Of a DNA stretch of 38,606 bases, positions 14,488-20,823 are shown piece by piece (positions within the stretch are counted from its first letter, which is position 1; each line of letters begins with the position of its first letter). The notes beneath the pieces are model-generated. The model did not search any database. It was not told the DNA's origin and saw only the letters and a program-made list of their open reading frames with translations. Origin of the DNA: an uncultured Erysipelotrichaceae bacterium (GTDB lineage Bacteria > Bacillota_I > Bacilli_A > RF39 > UBA660); contig CACXGX010000087.1 in NCBI GenBank assembly GCA_902767365.1, forward strand, positions 1 through 38,606. The letters run 5' to 3'. The translations under genes and the position numbers were made by a program.

Positions 14488-14835
14488 TCATTTCTTCTTT
14501 CTTGACTTATTTGAAACTAATAAATCATACTGCTTATACATATATTGAACACCATTTTCTAGATAATAATAGTGAAATATATAAGGAATTAATAAAGCAA
14601 TAAATAATATTACTAACAAAATTAAACCTAAACTTACATGTACCAAAGTAAAAAAGAAAGTTATAATTGTCATTAAAGCAAATAACATAGTTACTAAAAA
14701 GTGAATTAATCTTTCATGCATAAAAAACTTAATTTTAATTAAATGCTCCTCAATAACACTATCTAAATCACTAAAATCCCCGTTTGCAATATAATTATCA
14801 ATTTTATCAATATAACTTTTCATATAACTTTTCAT
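14488..14835 (-). CDS. Small two-helix membrane protein
   Basis: Unrecognised 115-residue protein with two adjacent hydrophobic helices (about 44-65 and 66-88) and a basic end, KSRKKK. The first codons are a 12 bp tandem duplication giving MKSYMKSY, so either ATG could initiate. The AAGGGA site lies closest to the first. It is the first gene of a probable two-gene transcript with the 525-residue protein, perhaps its membrane partner (inference from adjacency only). Confidence 0.6.
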   Translation of the reverse strand: MKSYMKSYIDKIDNYIANGDFSDLDSVIEEHLIKIKFFMHERLIHFLVTMLFALMTIITFFFTLVHVSLGLILLVILFIALLIPYIFHYYYLENGVQYMYKQYDLLVSNKSRKKK

Positions 14836-14860
14836 ATAAATCCCTTCTATCTATATAATT

Positions 14861-14912
14861 ATTTTATCATATTTTAAAAATATTTTTAAATATAATTGCA
14901 ATATGATATAAT
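14861..14912. promoter_or_regulatory. Divergent back-to-back promoters
   Basis: Two extended -10 elements face away from each other: TGATAAAAT on the minus strand (14869-14861) toward the small membrane protein, and TGATATAAT on the plus strand (14904-14912) toward the glycosyltransferase. They sit in an inverted repeat, TATCATATT/AATATGATA. No good -35 box is seen for either. Confidence 0.5.
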
Positions 14913-14938
14913 CATAATAGTAAAATAGAGGTAATTGT

Positions 14939-16378
14939 ATGATTGACTTATCACTAATAGTTTTAGGATTTCAAAATAATATTAAAAATGAACAAAATAA
15001 CGTTGAAATGATATATAGTAATGGAATCAATCTTATTGATACAATAAAAGACTCAAAAGGAAGATATATTGCTTTTATAAAAGAAGAAGATAATATTAGA
15101 GAAGATTACTTAAAAACAGTACTAAATAAATGTTCAGATGATTTTGATTGTTGTTTTATAAATTATAAAATAGAATTTAATTATATAAATGAACCTAAAA
15201 TAATTAAAAATAAAGATGAATTAAAAGAATTTAAACCATATTATGGAGAATACATTTGGGCATTTATTTACAATAAAGAATCACTTATAAAAATACTAGA
15301 AATAAAAGATAAAGATATTTTTAATAAAAAAGTTGATGAAGAATTTTTAAATAATACTGCCATAGAAGATGTAATATATTTTCATAAACCAACATCAACA
15401 AAATTAATAAAAGATTTTCAATTATCAGATATAAAAAGAAATGATTATAGTAAAAATATAATATACATAGGTAATGGATGTAATGGCGTTTTTAATGGAT
15501 ATATAAGTTGGATGAAAAATATAGGTAGATGTTTTGAAAATAAATATGAAATAACATTTTTATATGATAATTGTATTGATGAAACTTTAAAAGATTTTTC
15601 TAAATATTTTAGATGTGAGCAAAGAAAAGATGATATCAACTATGTTTGTGATAGATTATTAACTACATATTCTAATTATTTTTATCCGAAAAACATTACA
15701 TCATTAGAAGAAAATTATTTATTTATTCATGGAAACATGAGTGATTACCCAAATACTAGAGTATTTCATGATGACATATATACAAAATACATAGCAGTAT
15801 CTAAAACAGCAGCAGAAAAAGCAAAAGGATACTTTCCAACAAATAATATAGACTATATCCTAAATCCATTTAAGTTAGATGATAGTCTTACAAAACCGCA
15901 TTTAACTTTATCTTCAGCTTTCAGATATTCAGATGTAAAAAGACCGGATAGAATAGAAAAAATGGCAACAATTCTTGATGAATTACAAATACCATATACT
16001 TGGAACTTATTCACTGATAAATACGAAAATACTAATAGAAATGGATTAATATATAGAACAAGAGTAGCTAACCCAATACCATATATTAAAGATAGTGATT
16101 ATTTTGTTTTACTAAGTGATAGTGAATCATATGGTTATTGTGTTGTAGAAGCACTATCAGTAAATACAAAGGTAGTATTAACACCTCTTGAAGTATATAA
16201 TGAATTAGGAATAAATGATGAAAATGCTACTATTATACCTTTTGATTATTTTGAAGATAATAATAAAAATAAACTAAAAGAAATTATTATTAAAATGTAT
16301 GAAGAAAAAGATAAGATAGTTAAATATAATATAGACGAATCTTTATGGGAAAAATATAATTCAATATTTAAAAAATAG
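14939..16378 (+). CDS. Two-part glycosyltransferase (GT4-like C-terminal half)
   Basis: A 479-residue cytosolic protein. The N-terminal 110 residues resemble a fragment of a GT2 domain: ISNG-type start, then DTIKDSKGRYIAFIKEEDNI. The usual DxD is absent, so this part is probably inactive or vestigial. From about residue 175 the sequence resembles a GT-B enzyme: YIGNGCNGVFNGYISWMKNI, YIAVSKTAAEKA, a RPDRIEKMATIL segment and SDSESYGYCVVEALSVNTKV, whose Glu-x7-Glu spacing matches the nucleotide-sugar site of GT4. The acceptor is unknown. An AGAGGT site precedes ATG. It is monocistronic with its own terminator. Confidence 0.68.
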   Translation: MIDLSLIVLGFQNNIKNEQNNVEMIYSNGINLIDTIKDSKGRYIAFIKEEDNIREDYLKTVLNKCSDDFDCCFINYKIEFNYINEPKIIKNKDELKEFKPYYGEYIWAFIYNKESLIKILEIKDKDIFNKKVDEEFLNNTAIEDVIYFHKPTSTKLIKDFQLSDIKRNDYSKNIIYIGNGCNGVFNGYISWMKNIGRCFENKYEITFLYDNCIDETLKDFSKYFRCEQRKDDINYVCDRLLTTYSNYFYPKNITSLEENYLFIHGNMSDYPNTRVFHDDIYTKYIAVSKTAAEKAKGYFPTNNIDYILNPFKLDDSLTKPHLTLSSAFRYSDVKRPDRIEKMATILDELQIPYTWNLFTDKYENTNRNGLIYRTRVANPIPYIKDSDYFVLLSDSESYGYCVVEALSVNTKVVLTPLEVYNELGINDENATIIPFDYFEDNNKNKLKEIIIKMYEEKDKIVKYNIDESLWEKYNSIFKK

Positions 16379-16399
16379 ACTATTTAATTAGTCTTTTTT
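16377..16399 (+). terminator. Terminator of the glycosyltransferase gene
   Basis: AGACTA/TAGTCT hairpin followed by six T residues. The stem begins within the TAG stop. Confidence 0.75.
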
Positions 16400-16452
16400 A
16401 TTGTAAAGCAAAGCAAAATATAATGTTAATTTTAGCAAATAATAGATACATT

Positions 16453-16461
16453 TGGTATAAT
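16453..16461 (+). promoter_or_regulatory. Extended -10 promoter of the dockerin protease operon
   Basis: TGGTATAAT (TGn plus consensus TATAAT), about 22 bp upstream of the ATG at 16484. The -35 region (TTTAGC-like) is weak. Confidence 0.55.
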
Positions 16462-16483
16462 TATTATATTAGGAGAGATGTAG

Positions 16484-18664
16484 ATGAAAAAAACCTTCTT
16501 AATACTTATTTTATTTTTATCTTTCACGAAATGTTATGCTTTAGAAAAATGTACACCTAGTAAAGATTATAAAGAATATGAAAAATTAAATAATAAAGAA
16601 TTATATGAAGAACCAATTTATTGTAATGAGATAAAAAATAATACATCAAAAAACTCATTTAATACTAGAATCCAACTAAAAAATGGTTTTGGAAAGATAT
16701 CTCTATCCACAACTTTATCAGATAAATACAATGCATTAGAAGAAGGATACATTACAGGTATCAAAAATCAGTATAGTTTGGGTACCTGTTGGGCATTTTC
16801 AGCAATATCATCAGTTGAATCAAATGCATTAAAAAACAAATTAGATTCTTATGATTTTAGTGAAGCTCATATGATTTATTCTTTAATATCTGGAGGATAT
16901 AAAGATGAAGCTGGAAAAGTTGGAAAATACAAAACAGAAAATCTTAATGGTGGTCAAATAAACTATGCTGCTACATATTATTTCAATGGTCTAGGTCAAT
17001 TAAATGAAGAAGAAATGCCATATCCTAAAACATACAAAACTATTACAATAGATGAATATATTCCAGGTAGAGATATCATCTCTATTGAAAAATTTGAAAT
17101 TAACAACGTAAATGATTATGGCAAATGTACAAATAACGAAATTGAAATAATTAAATCAAAATTAATCGAATATGGTGCTGTTCAAGCAACTATGTATATG
17201 GATGAAAATTTATTCAAAGATTCAAACAAAAACTATTATATTTCAACAAATAGTAACTCAACTAATGCTAATCACGGAATAAGTATAATTGGGTGGGATG
17301 ATACAATAAACAAATCAAACTTTAAAGATGCAACAAGAGATGGAGCATGGTTAATAAAAAATTCTTGGGGAAATAACTGGAGTAATGATGGACTATTCTA
17401 TATATCATACGATGATAACTTTATTTGTAAAAATGTAGCATCATATATAGGGGCATCTACTGATAAATTTAATTACAAATACAAGTCAGCAGATTTAGTT
17501 GGTCTTCCAATATTTTACTTTAGTAACTCTTTTTACACATCAGCTAAATTTACAAAACAAAGTGAAAATGAAGAAGAAATAAAACGAATAAGTTTTCCAA
17601 CTGGAGAAAATATAACTTATAAAGTATATCTTTCTAAAAATAATACAATAAACGATAAAAATGACTGGATATTATTAAAAGAAGGACATTCAAATGCATT
17701 AGGAATTGATTCTATAAATTTAAATGAAAAAATAAACAATGATTTCACAATAATAACAGAATATAAAGTAGATACTGGAAAAAATTCTTCTATCTTAACA
17801 TTATGTAATGACAAAAAAGATACTGAAGATATAAATATAAGCAAAAATACAAATTATTATTCTAATAATGGAACACAATGGTATGACATGGAATCAATTA
17901 AAATTGGAGATGAAAAAATAAGTTGTGAACCTAATATTTATGCTTATACAAATTTAATAGAAAATGAAGATGAAAATATATCTATAAGTATTTCATCCAT
18001 ATCAAAAATAGATAATAATACAATAAACGTTTTAATCAATAAAAATGATATTAATATTGATAACATTATATATTCAATTAATGATTCAACTAATCGTGAT
18101 GTAACAAATCACTTCACAATAACCCCTTCATATGATAAAAACATTATTACAATAAAAAATGATAATCAAATATCTGGAGTATTTACTTTAAAATTACAAT
18201 ATGAAGATTTAATAATATCAAGGGACTTTACTTTAGATGAAATAATTAAATCTCTAAATTCAAAAACTAGAATAAATGTAGATACAATTATACTAATTGT
18301 GGATAAAGACAAAACATACAATTACAAAAATTTAATAGATAGCATATCAATAAGTAATACAACAATTAAAATATATGATGTAAATAATAACATAATAAAT
18401 CAAGATACCTCAACGATTGGAACAGATTATATACTTACAACAAATAATAAAAATTATAAGCTGATTGTAAAAGGAGATGCTACCCAAGATGGGACGGTTA
18501 ACTCCGCTGATTTATTAAAAATAGTTAAATATCTTAAAGGTTCAAATCAATTGAGTAAAGGTCAACAGATAGCTAGTGATTGTACAAATGATTCAATAAT
18601 TAATTCTGCTGATTTATTAAAAATAGTTAAATATCTTAAAGGTACATCAAATATTACAATGTAG
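16484..18664 (+). CDS. Secreted C1 (papain-like) cysteine protease with dockerin
   Basis: A 726-residue exported protease. A Sec signal peptide (MKKTFLILILFLSFTKCYA) has no lipobox. The C1A catalytic domain spans about 80-315: Gln96 and Cys102 in NQYSLGTCWAFS, His264 in NANHGISIIGWDD, Asn293 in WLIKNSWGNNWS. All catalytic residues are present. Residues 320-490 look like the beta-rich lectin-like domain that follows C1 domains in clostridial proteins; 490-660 is a linker or Ig-like region. Residues 664-726 form a type I dockerin: two 22-residue calcium-loop repeats (DATQDGTVNSADLL and DCTNDSIINSADLL, each followed by KIVKYLKG). A dockerin normally docks to a cohesin on a scaffold. Ribosome site AGGAG. 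It is coupled to the next gene, whose ribosome site overlaps this stop. Confidence 0.88.
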   Translation: MKKTFLILILFLSFTKCYALEKCTPSKDYKEYEKLNNKELYEEPIYCNEIKNNTSKNSFNTRIQLKNGFGKISLSTTLSDKYNALEEGYITGIKNQYSLGTCWAFSAISSVESNALKNKLDSYDFSEAHMIYSLISGGYKDEAGKVGKYKTENLNGGQINYAATYYFNGLGQLNEEEMPYPKTYKTITIDEYIPGRDIISIEKFEINNVNDYGKCTNNEIEIIKSKLIEYGAVQATMYMDENLFKDSNKNYYISTNSNSTNANHGISIIGWDDTINKSNFKDATRDGAWLIKNSWGNNWSNDGLFYISYDDNFICKNVASYIGASTDKFNYKYKSADLVGLPIFYFSNSFYTSAKFTKQSENEEEIKRISFPTGENITYKVYLSKNNTINDKNDWILLKEGHSNALGIDSINLNEKINNDFTIITEYKVDTGKNSSILTLCNDKKDTEDINISKNTNYYSNNGTQWYDMESIKIGDEKISCEPNIYAYTNLIENEDENISISISSISKIDNNTINVLINKNDINIDNIIYSINDSTNRDVTNHFTITPSYDKNIITIKNDNQISGVFTLKLQYEDLIISRDFTLDEIIKSLNSKTRINVDTIILIVDKDKTYNYKNLIDSISISNTTIKIYDVNNNIINQDTSTIGTDYILTTNNKNYKLIVKGDATQDGTVNSADLLKIVKYLKGSNQLSKGQQIASDCTNDSIINSADLLKIVKYLKGTSNITM
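18506..18643 (+). repeat. Dockerin tandem repeat, near-identical at DNA level
   Basis: A 36-base direct repeat at 18506-18541 and 18608-18643, 102 bp apart, encodes the second half of each dockerin repeat (ADLLKIVKYLKG). Identity including synonymous positions suggests recent duplication or gene conversion rather than old divergence. Confidence 0.85.
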
Positions 18665-18672
18665 GAGGTAAA

Positions 18673-19560
18673 ATGAAAAAAAGAATAATTAAAGGATTAT
18701 TATCACTTATATTATTTACCATATTTATAACAGGCCAAAAAGTAAACGCAGCATCAGCATCAATAACATCGTCGAAAACATCTGCCATAGTTGGTGATAA
18801 AGTAACGATAACAATAACTTCCAAAGCCGGTTCTTGGAACTTAAAAGTAAGTGGAAGTGGAATTAGTGATTCAATAGTAGGATACGATTTAGATGGCAAC
18901 AAAACAACAACAAAAACTTATACATTAAATACGTCCAAAGTAGGAACATACACAGTTAGCTTAAAAGGAGATATAACAGACTACGATACAGAAGTTAATT
19001 CAACTATTAATAAATCTGTAACAGTAACTGTTAAATCAAAACCAACTACCACAACTACTACAAAGCCAACTACTACAAAACCAACTACTACAACTCCTAA
19101 ACCAGAAGTTATTGAACCAATAAAAATATCTAAATTTGATATAATTGGTTATAATATTGATTTTAATAATGATAAATTAGAATATGAAATAAATGTTGAT
19201 AAAGATGTAACAAAATTATATATTATTGTTGAAGGTAATAGTATAACTACTTCCGGAGATAAAATTGTAGATATAAAAGATAAAGACGAAATAATAGTTA
19301 AAATTACAAAAAAAACATTATCAAAAGAATATAAAATAAAAATAAATAGAAAGAAAACTGAAGATGAGTTAAAAGAAGCAATAACAAAGGAGTTTGAAGA
19401 ATCAAAAAGAAAAGAAGAAGAAAGTAAAAAATTAGAAATAAAAGAAGAAACAATAGAAAACAAATCAATTAACATATTTTTAATATCTACAATTATACTT
19501 GGGATAATATCTATTATTGAGTTTATAATTATTATGAAAAGAAAACCTAAGAACTTATAA
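18673..19560 (+). CDS. Membrane-anchored surface protein, Ig-like plus cadherin-like domains
   Basis: A 295-residue exported protein. A signal peptide ends near VNAAS (about residue 26). An Ig-like domain follows (about 27-123; AIVGDKVTITITSKAGSWN, GTYTVSLKGD), then a Thr/Pro/Lys linker (about 124-145). Next is a domain resembling the cadherin-like beta sandwich found in clostridial surface proteins (about 150-225; ISKFDIIGYNIDFNNDKLEY). A charged helix rich in Glu/Lys, a C-terminal membrane helix (about 268-288) and a basic KRKPKNL tail complete it. There is no LPXTG motif, so anchoring is by the helix. AGGAGGT overlaps the upstream stop by one to two bases, implying coupling. The Ig-like domain is too short to be a normal cohesin. 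A role as surface partner of the dockerin protease is inferred from adjacency. Confidence 0.75.
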   Translation: MKKRIIKGLLSLILFTIFITGQKVNAASASITSSKTSAIVGDKVTITITSKAGSWNLKVSGSGISDSIVGYDLDGNKTTTKTYTLNTSKVGTYTVSLKGDITDYDTEVNSTINKSVTVTVKSKPTTTTTTKPTTTKPTTTTPKPEVIEPIKISKFDIIGYNIDFNNDKLEYEINVDKDVTKLYIIVEGNSITTSGDKIVDIKDKDEIIVKITKKTLSKEYKIKINRKKTEDELKEAITKEFEESKRKEEESKKLEIKEETIENKSINIFLISTIILGIISIIEFIIIMKRKPKNL

Positions 19561-19575
19561 TAGTTCTTTTTTTTT
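19549..19575 (+). terminator. Terminator of the protease-surface protein operon
   Basis: AAGAACT/AGTTCTT hairpin containing the TAA stop, followed by a run of T residues. It faces the convergent terminator at 19577-19606. Confidence 0.8.
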
Positions 19576-19576
19576 G

Positions 19577-19606
19577 TAAAAAAAAAGATAGACATTAGTC
19601 TATCTT
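19577..19606 (-). terminator. Terminator of the ftsEX-M23 operon
   Basis: Minus-strand hairpin AAGATAGAC/GTCTATCTT with loop TAAT, followed by a long T run. The M23 peptidase stop codon lies in the stem. Confidence 0.85.
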
Positions 19607-20823
19607 GAACTCCAAGAATTATAAGTACCTTTAGGGAAAGAAATTAACTTTCTTGGTCCATATCCTTGTTTCAATAAATTTTGTGCAAATGAATCATATG
19701 CACTCCATTTATAACAATTTTTATCAGTCGGATCATATAACCTACATGGGAATACCTCTAAATGTAAGTGTACTCCATATGCTTTACCCGTATCACCCAT
19801 ATAACCAATATATTGATCACTAGTAATATTCATTCCAACTTTTAATCCAGGCGCATAAGAACTCATATGAACATATAATGATGAATAATATTTACCATCT
19901 TTAACATTATAATGTTGAATTACAAGACATAATGCATGCCATTTATCTTCATATATTGATGTAATCTTTCCATCTGCAATTGGATAAATCTTTTCTTTTC
20001 TACCATTTTTACTTCCAATATCTAATGCCCTATGGAATTTAGAAGCATTTTTAAAATATGATTCTTGAGTAACATATCCTGTCTTTGTAGGTCTTCTAAA
20101 TATTCCAGTACCTCCTTGAACAGCACAATCAACTCCAATGACATCATTAGTCTTACAACCTTGTTTTTTATACATAGCAACAGTTTCTTCATATATCTTA
20201 ATTTGTTTTGCAGTATCAACACCACCAGATTGTAAAGACTCTTTCTTCTCTCCAAGAGATACAACATTATTTGCAAGTTCAACTTCTTTATTACTAATTA
20301 TAGCCTGTCTTTTATCAATCTCTTCTTGTCTTTTTTCATTATCTTTTATTATTTGTTCCATATCATTAATTACTCTTGTATTATAATCAATAATTTCTTT
20401 AACAACATAACTTCTGTTTATTAAATCTGTAACAGAATTAGCTTTGAAAACATAATCAAGATATACATTCCTTCCACTTGATATTTGCATAAATTCTAAT
20501 ATCTGTTTTGATTCAGTAAGTTTATCTTTTATTTCTTCTTTATAAGAAGCAATTTCTTCATTTAATTTTACAATTTCTTTACTAAGAGATAAAGTTTCAT
20601 TTTTTAAACTTTCTATTCGATTTTTTGTACTATTTATTTCACTTTGAGTTTTATTAATTGCTTTTTGATTATCTTCATATTCTTTTTTATACTTTGCTAC
20701 CATTTGCTCATAGTATCCTAGAGTACGATTAGAAGCAGCGTCAACATTACCAGGTATAAACATTGGAATAAATAAACCAATTAATAATAGAACAAGAACT
20801 ATATTTTTAACTATCTTTATCAT
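19600..20823 (-). CDS. Coiled-coil M23 peptidoglycan endopeptidase (EnvC/PcsB-type FtsEX partner)
   Basis: A 407-residue exported murein hydrolase. After a signal or anchor segment (1-30) comes a long coiled coil (about 35-220), then an M23 domain (about 260-370). The zinc motif is complete: His264-x3-Asp268 (HRALD), the catalytic His319 (YVHM) and His352-x-His354 (HLHLEV). EnvC-like and PcsB-like proteins use such coiled coils to bind the extracellular loop of FtsX, which activates hydrolysis during division. Its ATG overlaps the ftsX stop as ATGA, supporting that role. Unlike EnvC, which has a degenerate LytM domain, this enzyme looks catalytically competent. Confidence 0.85.
   Translation of the reverse strand: MIKIVKNIVLVLLLIGLFIPMFIPGNVDAASNRTLGYYEQMVAKYKKEYEDNQKAINKTQSEINSTKNRIESLKNETLSLSKEIVKLNEEIASYKEEIKDKLTESKQILEFMQISSGRNVYLDYVFKANSVTDLINRSYVVKEIIDYNTRVINDMEQIIKDNEKRQEEIDKRQAIISNKEVELANNVVSLGEKKESLQSGGVDTAKQIKIYEETVAMYKKQGCKTNDVIGVDCAVQGGTGIFRRPTKTGYVTQESYFKNASKFHRALDIGSKNGRKEKIYPIADGKITSIYEDKWHALCLVIQHYNVKDGKYYSSLYVHMSSYAPGLKVGMNITSDQYIGYMGDTGKAYGVHLHLEVFPCRLYDPTDKNCYKWSAYDSFAQNLLKQGYGPRKLISFPKGTYNSWSSR

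What the first reader, a model, noticed from the sequence alone, without database searches (positions are those of the whole stretch)
16484..19560. Dockerin-tailed C1 protease coupled to a membrane-anchored surface protein
A catalytically complete papain-like protease carries a two-repeat dockerin and is translationally coupled (ribosome site overlapping the stop) to an Ig-like/cadherin-like protein with a C-terminal membrane helix. Dockerins are best known on plant-fibre enzymes; a protease version with a dedicated neighbour suggests a small protein-degrading or host-directed surface complex in a reduced gut Bacilli. The neighbour has no normal cohesin, so either an unrecognised docking domain or a distant scaffold exists.
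Basis: partly seen in the sequence, partly recalled or inferred. Interest (0 to 1): 0.7.

Follow-up and report, generated by a model that had tools for sequence, protein, structure and literature searches.

The report
Membrane-docked protease: minimal cohesin–dockerin pair
A secreted papain-type protease carries a "plug" (dockerin), and the very next gene encodes what looks like a membrane-anchored "socket" (a shortened cohesin-like domain); the same plug-and-socket gene layout recurs across a large family of small-genome uncultured Bacilli, mostly on a cell-wall enzyme.

Summary
ORF 16484-18664 is a catalytically complete C1 protease with a C-terminal type I dockerin. It is coupled to 18673-19560: signal peptide, Ig-like domain, linker, cadherin-like domain, C-terminal TM helix.

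Pfam finds no cohesin in the neighbour, but its N-domain profile aligns full-length with cohesins of the same bacterial family. A whole-genome search with that profile, without any adjacency criterion, landed directly downstream of a dockerin gene at 25 of 26 independent loci. In 12 held-out dockerin loci, 12 of 12 had such a partner 8-19 nt downstream. Dockerins occur in 289/386 family genomes, usually on a SagB-like glucosaminidase. Of 17 C1-dockerin genes examined, 14 had a cohesin-like or TM partner next door; for one exception a partner is encoded elsewhere.

Best explanation: a one-enzyme, one-receptor cohesin-dockerin module that tethers the protease to the outer face of the membrane. 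Binding itself is inferred; no co-fold could be run. A host-directed role is unsupported. Dockerin peptidases and single-cohesin TM anchors are known separately; the short receptor domain and its family-wide one-to-one use look like a new variant.

The parts
16484..18664 (+). C1A (papain-like) cysteine protease with C-terminal type I dockerin, 726 aa, secreted
   Evidence: ORF; PF00112 and PF00404 over cut-off; best PDB relative C. difficile surface cysteine protease 4ci7/4d59, E 1e-23 over res 76-402
16736..17431 (+). Peptidase C1 domain (res 85-316); Gln96, Cys102, His264, Asn293
   Evidence: PF00112; residues invariant in 7 homologues
17471..17953 (+). probable lectin-like domain after the C1 domain (approx. 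res 330-490)
   Evidence: aligned position of PF18560 in the homologue L076; 4ci7 match extends to res 402; PF18560 does not itself hit the window protein
18470..18637 (+). Dockerin type I domain, two near-identical Ca-binding repeats (res 663-718)
   Evidence: PF00404 E 5e-9; genome search 42.6 bits
18662..18675 (+). translational coupling: stop TAG 18662-18664 overlapped by Shine-Dalgarno AGGAGGT 18663-18669, next ATG 18673
   Evidence: sequence
18673..19560 (+). membrane-anchored partner protein, 295 aa (proposed dockerin receptor)
   Evidence: ORF; family alignments A1, A3, A4
18673..18750 (+). signal peptide of the partner (approx. res 1-26, ending VNA-A)
   Evidence: sequence; conserved V-x-A-A at its end in the alignment
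18751..19041 (+). N-terminal short cohesin-like Ig-type beta-sandwich (res 27-123), proposed dockerin-binding domain
   Evidence: AF2 pLDDT 89.3, 8 strands; hhalign family profile vs cohesins 93-97%; adjacency to dockerin genes
19042..19113 (+). Thr/Pro/Lys-rich linker
   Evidence: sequence
19120..19347 (+). cadherin-like (PF12733-type) domain, approx. res 150-225
   Evidence: weak PF12733 in the window, over cut-off in homologues, alignment A11
19462..19524 (+). C-terminal transmembrane helix (approx. res 264-284) followed by a basic tail
   Evidence: hydropathy and sequence

Best explanation
The two genes form a minimal cohesin-dockerin display module. The secreted C1 protease is held on the outer face of the cytoplasmic membrane by its C-terminal dockerin, which binds the N-terminal short cohesin-like domain of the co-translated, membrane-anchored neighbour. 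The linker and cadherin-like domain act as a stalk and the C-terminal helix as anchor. It is one enzyme per receptor rather than a multi-enzyme scaffold, and is the protease version of a layout that the bacterial family mainly uses to hold a SagB-like glucosaminidase near the membrane. Shown here: domain content, translational coupling, gene pairing in relatives, cohesin kinship of the receptor domain by profile. Inferred: that the dockerin binds this domain; that the complex stays on the cell; that the substrates are extracellular proteins (environmental protein or the cell's own surface proteins).
For: Dockerin and C1 over cut-off. Same layout for the second dockerin of the own genome and in 11 genus loci. 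N-domains of those 11 genus partners all match PF00963 Cohesin at E<0.1 (best 1.3e-7). Window-type N-domain profile vs those partners 95.8%, E 7e-9, 94 columns, and vs Pfam-recognised cohesins 93.4%, 92 columns; cadherin-like control 0.2%; column-shuffled controls score below 16 against 43-50 observed. Genome-wide search with the partner profile, with no adjacency criterion, hit directly downstream of a dockerin gene at 25 of 26 independent loci. Held-out dockerin loci: 12 of 12 with partner 8-19 nt downstream, each with a C-terminal TM helix. Background: 3 of 237 other gene pairs, all three within dockerin loci. In L085 a C1-dockerin gene follows two cohesin + cadherin-like + TM genes over the Pfam cut-off. 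In G001 the C1-dockerin gene has no partner next to it, but a window-type partner (E 2e-31) is encoded on another contig.
Against: No direct binding evidence; no complex could be predicted. None of 30 window-type N-domains matches PF00963, while 5 of 30 weakly match Big_2, and the profile is also 91% to Big_2 over 64 columns, so the domain could be an Ig domain that merely sits beside dockerin genes. Structure search gives a generic Ig-like sandwich; C. perfringens cohesins (Z 8.3-8.4, 97-100 of 103 residues) are tied with unrelated Ig folds. C1-dockerin genes L039 and L075 lack an adjacent partner. Two cohesin-type partners (L076, L078) show no C-terminal TM by the simple hydropathy cut.
Confidence: 0.76

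Rival explanations
1. The protease docks to another cohesin protein of the same cell (the SagB-type partner on contig C65 or the orphan cohesin on C33), and the neighbour is an unrelated co-expressed surface protein.
For: The own genome holds cohesin-like domains elsewhere; an orphan cohesin + cadherin-like + TM protein has no dockerin gene beside it in the window genome; dockerin-cohesin pairs can be promiscuous (general knowledge).
Against: The window-type partner domain is found next to dockerins at nearly every locus, and the trans partner in G001 is of this type.
Confidence: 0.13
2. The N-domain is a Big_2-like Ig module that acts as a spacer or ligand-binding domain, not a dockerin receptor; the pair is merely an operon of two surface proteins.
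For: 5 of 30 family members weakly match Big_2; hhalign 91% over 64 columns; weak PDB sequence hits to S-layer Ig domains.
Against: Genuine Big_2 domains in this genus score 50-78 bits and none is found in the own genome; the window domain alone prefers cohesins (85.7%) over Big_2 (1.5%); the adjacency to dockerins would be unexplained.
Confidence: 0.08
3. A host-directed or virulence-type protease complex, as hinted by the first reader.
For: Gut/rumen-type provenance of several named relatives; the closest solved relative is a pathogen's surface protease.
Against: The relative 4ci7/4d59 is, from general knowledge, Cwp84, a protease that processes the cell's own S-layer; most dockerin enzymes of the family are cell-wall glucosaminidases; no host-binding or toxin module was seen.
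Confidence: 0.03

Closest known systems
Single-cohesin 'nonSLH-anchoring scaffoldins' with a C-terminal TM helix (PMC11557425: H. luporum, C. cibarium, Lachnoclostridium sp. MSJ-17)
   Same: secreted protein with one cohesin and a C-terminal membrane helix
   Different: their binding partners are unclear or many; here the receptor is encoded directly after its own enzyme, one to one, and the receptor domain is too diverged for the Pfam cohesin model
Dockerin-bearing peptidases in cellulosomes and mucinolysomes (R. flavefaciens RflaF_05439, PMC3573020; Limousia, PMC12997984)
   Same: peptidase with C-terminal dockerin
   Different: the R. flavefaciens module is NlpC/P60-like; those enzymes join multi-cohesin scaffoldins
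C. difficile surface cysteine protease (PDB 4ci7, 4d59; Cwp84 by general knowledge)
   Same: C1A protease followed by a lectin-like domain, cell-surface located
   Different: anchored by cell-wall-binding repeats (general knowledge); here a dockerin takes that place
C. perfringens non-cellulosomal cohesin modules (2jh2, 2vo8, 2w1n)
   Same: similar sandwich fold over nearly the whole domain (Z 8.3-8.4)
   Different: 133-135 residues versus about 97; carried on glycoside hydrolases rather than on a TM receptor; structural tie with other Ig folds
SagB glucosaminidase of the peptidoglycan release complex (NCBIfam NF052642)
   Same: glucosaminidase domain of the main dockerin enzyme of this bacterial family (E 1e-21, below the family cut-off)
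   Different: here the enzyme carries SH3, cadherin-like and dockerin modules

Membership tests
Peptidase C1A (papain family) | Gln/Cys/His/Asn catalytic set in a PF00112 domain | tested here: met
Dockerin type I | two Ca-binding loop-helix repeats matching PF00404 over cut-off | tested here: met
   36.6 bits vs 22.9
Dockerin type I | binds a cohesin | not testable with these tools
Cohesin (PF00963), for the neighbour's N-domain | match to PF00963 over cut-off | tested here: not met
   no match in the window protein nor in 30 window-type domains
Cohesin (PF00963), for the neighbour's N-domain | homology by profile to recognised cohesins over the full domain | tested here: met
   hhalign 93.4% (92 columns) and 95.8% (94 columns), controls low except Big_2 (91%, 64 columns)
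Cohesin (PF00963), for the neighbour's N-domain | cohesin fold | tested here: inconclusive
   beta-sandwich model; C. perfringens cohesins Z 8.3-8.4 tied with other Ig folds
Cellulosome | scaffoldin with several cohesins plus cellulases | tested here: inconclusive
   the own genome shows only single-cohesin-like proteins and 2 dockerins, but it is 74% complete; cellulases were not searched
Big_2 (PF02368), for the neighbour's N-domain | match to PF02368 over cut-off | tested here: not met
   no hit in the window domain; no Big_2 at E 1e-5 in the own genome
Sortase-dependent surface display | LPxTG signal on enzyme or partner | tested here: not met
   neither protein has one (sequence), although sortases exist in 349/386 family genomes

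The most novel reading that the evidence does not exclude
A distinct short (about 97 residue) Ig-type dockerin receptor, intermediate in profile between cohesin and Big_2, serves alongside or instead of the classical cohesin in a large family of small-genome Bacilli as a one-to-one, membrane-anchored display system for a cell-wall glucosaminidase and, in some members, papain-type proteases.
Probability: 0.5. Interest if true: 0.72.

Novelty: new variant of a known kind. Interest (0 to 1): 0.58.

Why it matters
Cohesin-dockerin pairing is usually discussed as a device for assembling many enzymes on fibre. Here the same kind of parts appear in about three quarters of the sampled genomes of a small-genome lineage (mostly 0.6-1.9 Mb), typically as one enzyme and one membrane receptor, which suggests that the pair serves simple enzyme display and perhaps cell-wall biology. 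It supplies many natural, compact, gene-linked dockerin-receptor pairs, some with a receptor domain that present models miss, for tests of binding specificity and for engineering.

Tried and rejected
AF2 of the enzyme's C-terminal half (res 490-726) was poor (pLDDT 54) and is not used. Sortase-replacement idea: rejected, sortases are present in 349/386 family genomes. Viral contigs and phage records gave only distant C1 relatives. The Pfam/PDB sequence scans of the N-domain gave weak Big_2 and S-layer Ig hits only. The 'order' search listed only genomes of the same family, so spread beyond it is untested. A first Big_2 control with three sequences was too shallow and was replaced by 17 sequences, which is less favourable to the cohesin reading. 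Papers: no description found of cohesin-dockerin pairs in RF39/Mollicutes-related Bacilli, but only open-licence papers are held.

Full report
WHAT IS THERE. The ORF 16484-18664 (726 aa) and the ORF 18673-19560 (295 aa) are exactly as described. The first is a papain-type protease (PF00112, E 1.7e-23) with a C-terminal type I dockerin (PF00404, E 5e-9). The catalytic Gln96/Cys102/His264/Asn293 are invariant in seven homologues. Its nearest solved relative is the C. difficile surface cysteine protease 4ci7/4d59 (E 1e-23 over res 76-402); a homologue in the same bacterial family carries a Pfam lectin-like domain after the C1 domain. The Shine-Dalgarno AGGAGGT overlaps the TAG stop and lies a few bases before the next ATG. 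By eye, weak T-tailed hairpins lie before the protease gene (about 16377-16400) and after the partner gene (about 19549-19575); the scan tool did not count them, so a two-gene transcription unit is only plausible.

THE NEIGHBOUR. It has a signal peptide, an Ig-like domain, a Thr/Pro linker, a weak cadherin-like domain and a C-terminal TM helix. Its N-domain has no Pfam cohesin match. AlphaFold2 on two sequences gives a confident eight-strand sandwich (pLDDT 89.3, pTM 0.80). Fold comparison gives many Ig-like folds; three C. perfringens cohesins cover 97-100 of 103 residues at Z 8.3-8.4, but the best unrelated rows reach 9.8, so the fold search does not decide.

THE GENOME CONTEXT. The own genome (1.6 Mb, 74% complete, 134 contigs) has one other dockerin, on contig C65: a SagB-like glucosaminidase with SH3, cadherin-like and dockerin modules (Pfam; the SagB assignment rests on orthologues L028 and L030, E 1e-21), followed after 10 nt by a cohesin-like + cadherin-like + TM protein. 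With this one, the pair is seen at 11 loci of the genus. All 11 partner N-domains match PF00963 at E<0.1, best 1.3e-7. C1 proteases occur in 3 of 12 genus genomes: the window, G007 (partner adjacent) and G001 (no adjacent partner, but a window-type partner on another contig).

FAMILY-WIDE PATTERN. Dockerins are found in 289 of 386 sampled genomes and 122 of 150 genera of the family. A profile of four window-type partners (A3) was searched in whole genomes without any adjacency criterion; apart from three profile members, 25 of 26 loci with the N-domain lie directly downstream of a dockerin gene. Twelve dockerin loci not used in any profile all have the partner 8-19 nt downstream with a C-terminal TM helix. 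In loci on hand, 53 of 58 dockerin ORFs with a downstream ORF had a recognised partner domain against 3 of 237 other pairs, and those three lie inside dockerin loci; this figure is partly circular, because some profiles were made from neighbours. C1-dockerin genes (17 seen): partner directly downstream in the window, L035, L076, L078, L079, L080, L081, L082, L091, L093 and L125 (L079 by architecture only); L086 and L090 have a cohesin-type neighbour upstream; one gene of the L085 cluster follows two Pfam cohesins. L039, L075 and the second C1 gene of L085 have none adjacent.

IS THE N-DOMAIN A COHESIN? Trimmed to the domain, its family profile aligns with the genus cohesins (95.8%, 94 columns) and with Pfam-recognised cohesins (93.4%, 92 columns); cadherin-like 0.2%; column-shuffled controls stay below score 16 against 43-50. 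A Big_2 profile gives 91% over 64 columns, so the family sits between the two; the window sequence alone scores 85.7% with the genus cohesins and 1.5% with Big_2. Several partners match both the short-domain and the cohesin profiles. I call it cohesin-like by homology and position; it fails the Pfam membership test.

MECHANISM. The best-supported reading is a one-to-one tether: the dockerin on the protease binds the N-domain of the co-translated neighbour, which holds the enzyme at the membrane by a stalk and a helix. Binding, surface retention and substrate are inferred. Sortases are common in the family, so the pair does not replace a missing sortase system.

WHAT IS KNOWN. Single cohesins with C-terminal TM helices have been noted in other genomes, with unclear partners (PMC11557425); dockerin peptidases are known (PMC3573020, PMC12997984). 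A survey of RF39 and related orders does not mention cohesins (PMC10868615). The assignment of the window's lineage to a named family is not established here; the closest named ortholog pair is from 'Bacilli bacterium' JAUNMV010000045.1 (44% identity).

Noticed in passing
L025:5424-9015 (own genome, contig C65): SagB-like glucosaminidase-dockerin gene followed 10 nt later by a cohesin-like + cadherin-like + TM gene; conserved through the genus, usually followed by a third large membrane protein and an RNase J-like gene.
   Followed up: partly
L085:554-14887 (G187 contig C7): Cluster of four dockerin proteins (two with C1 protease domains) with two Pfam-recognised cohesin + cadherin-like + TM proteins between them: a possible small multi-enzyme surface complex.
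   Followed up: partly
L042:1426-7554 (G008): M60 metallopeptidase with a dockerin-like module near its N-terminus, followed 12 nt later by a 312 aa secreted protein with a C-terminal TM helix.
   Followed up: no
L026:3706-5157 (own genome, contig C33): Cohesin-like + cadherin-like + TM protein, with similar-sized cohesin proteins throughout the genus, but no dockerin gene beside it here; the gene upstream looks like a polysaccharide deacetylase.
   Followed up: partly
L040:2-6041 (G003): Cadherin-like array with C-terminal dockerin followed by two cohesin + cadherin-like + TM proteins in a row.
   Followed up: no
L041:4247-11971 (G009): A 2574 aa protein with both a cohesin and a dockerin match in one chain.
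   Followed up: no
window 14488-20823 versus L044:6266-13708: In G009 the pcsB-like gene is directly followed by the 114 aa homologue (61% identical) and then a large dockerin protein; in the window a glycosyltransferase and the protease pair lie between these two genes, suggesting a variable cargo slot beside ftsEX-pcsB.
   Followed up: partly
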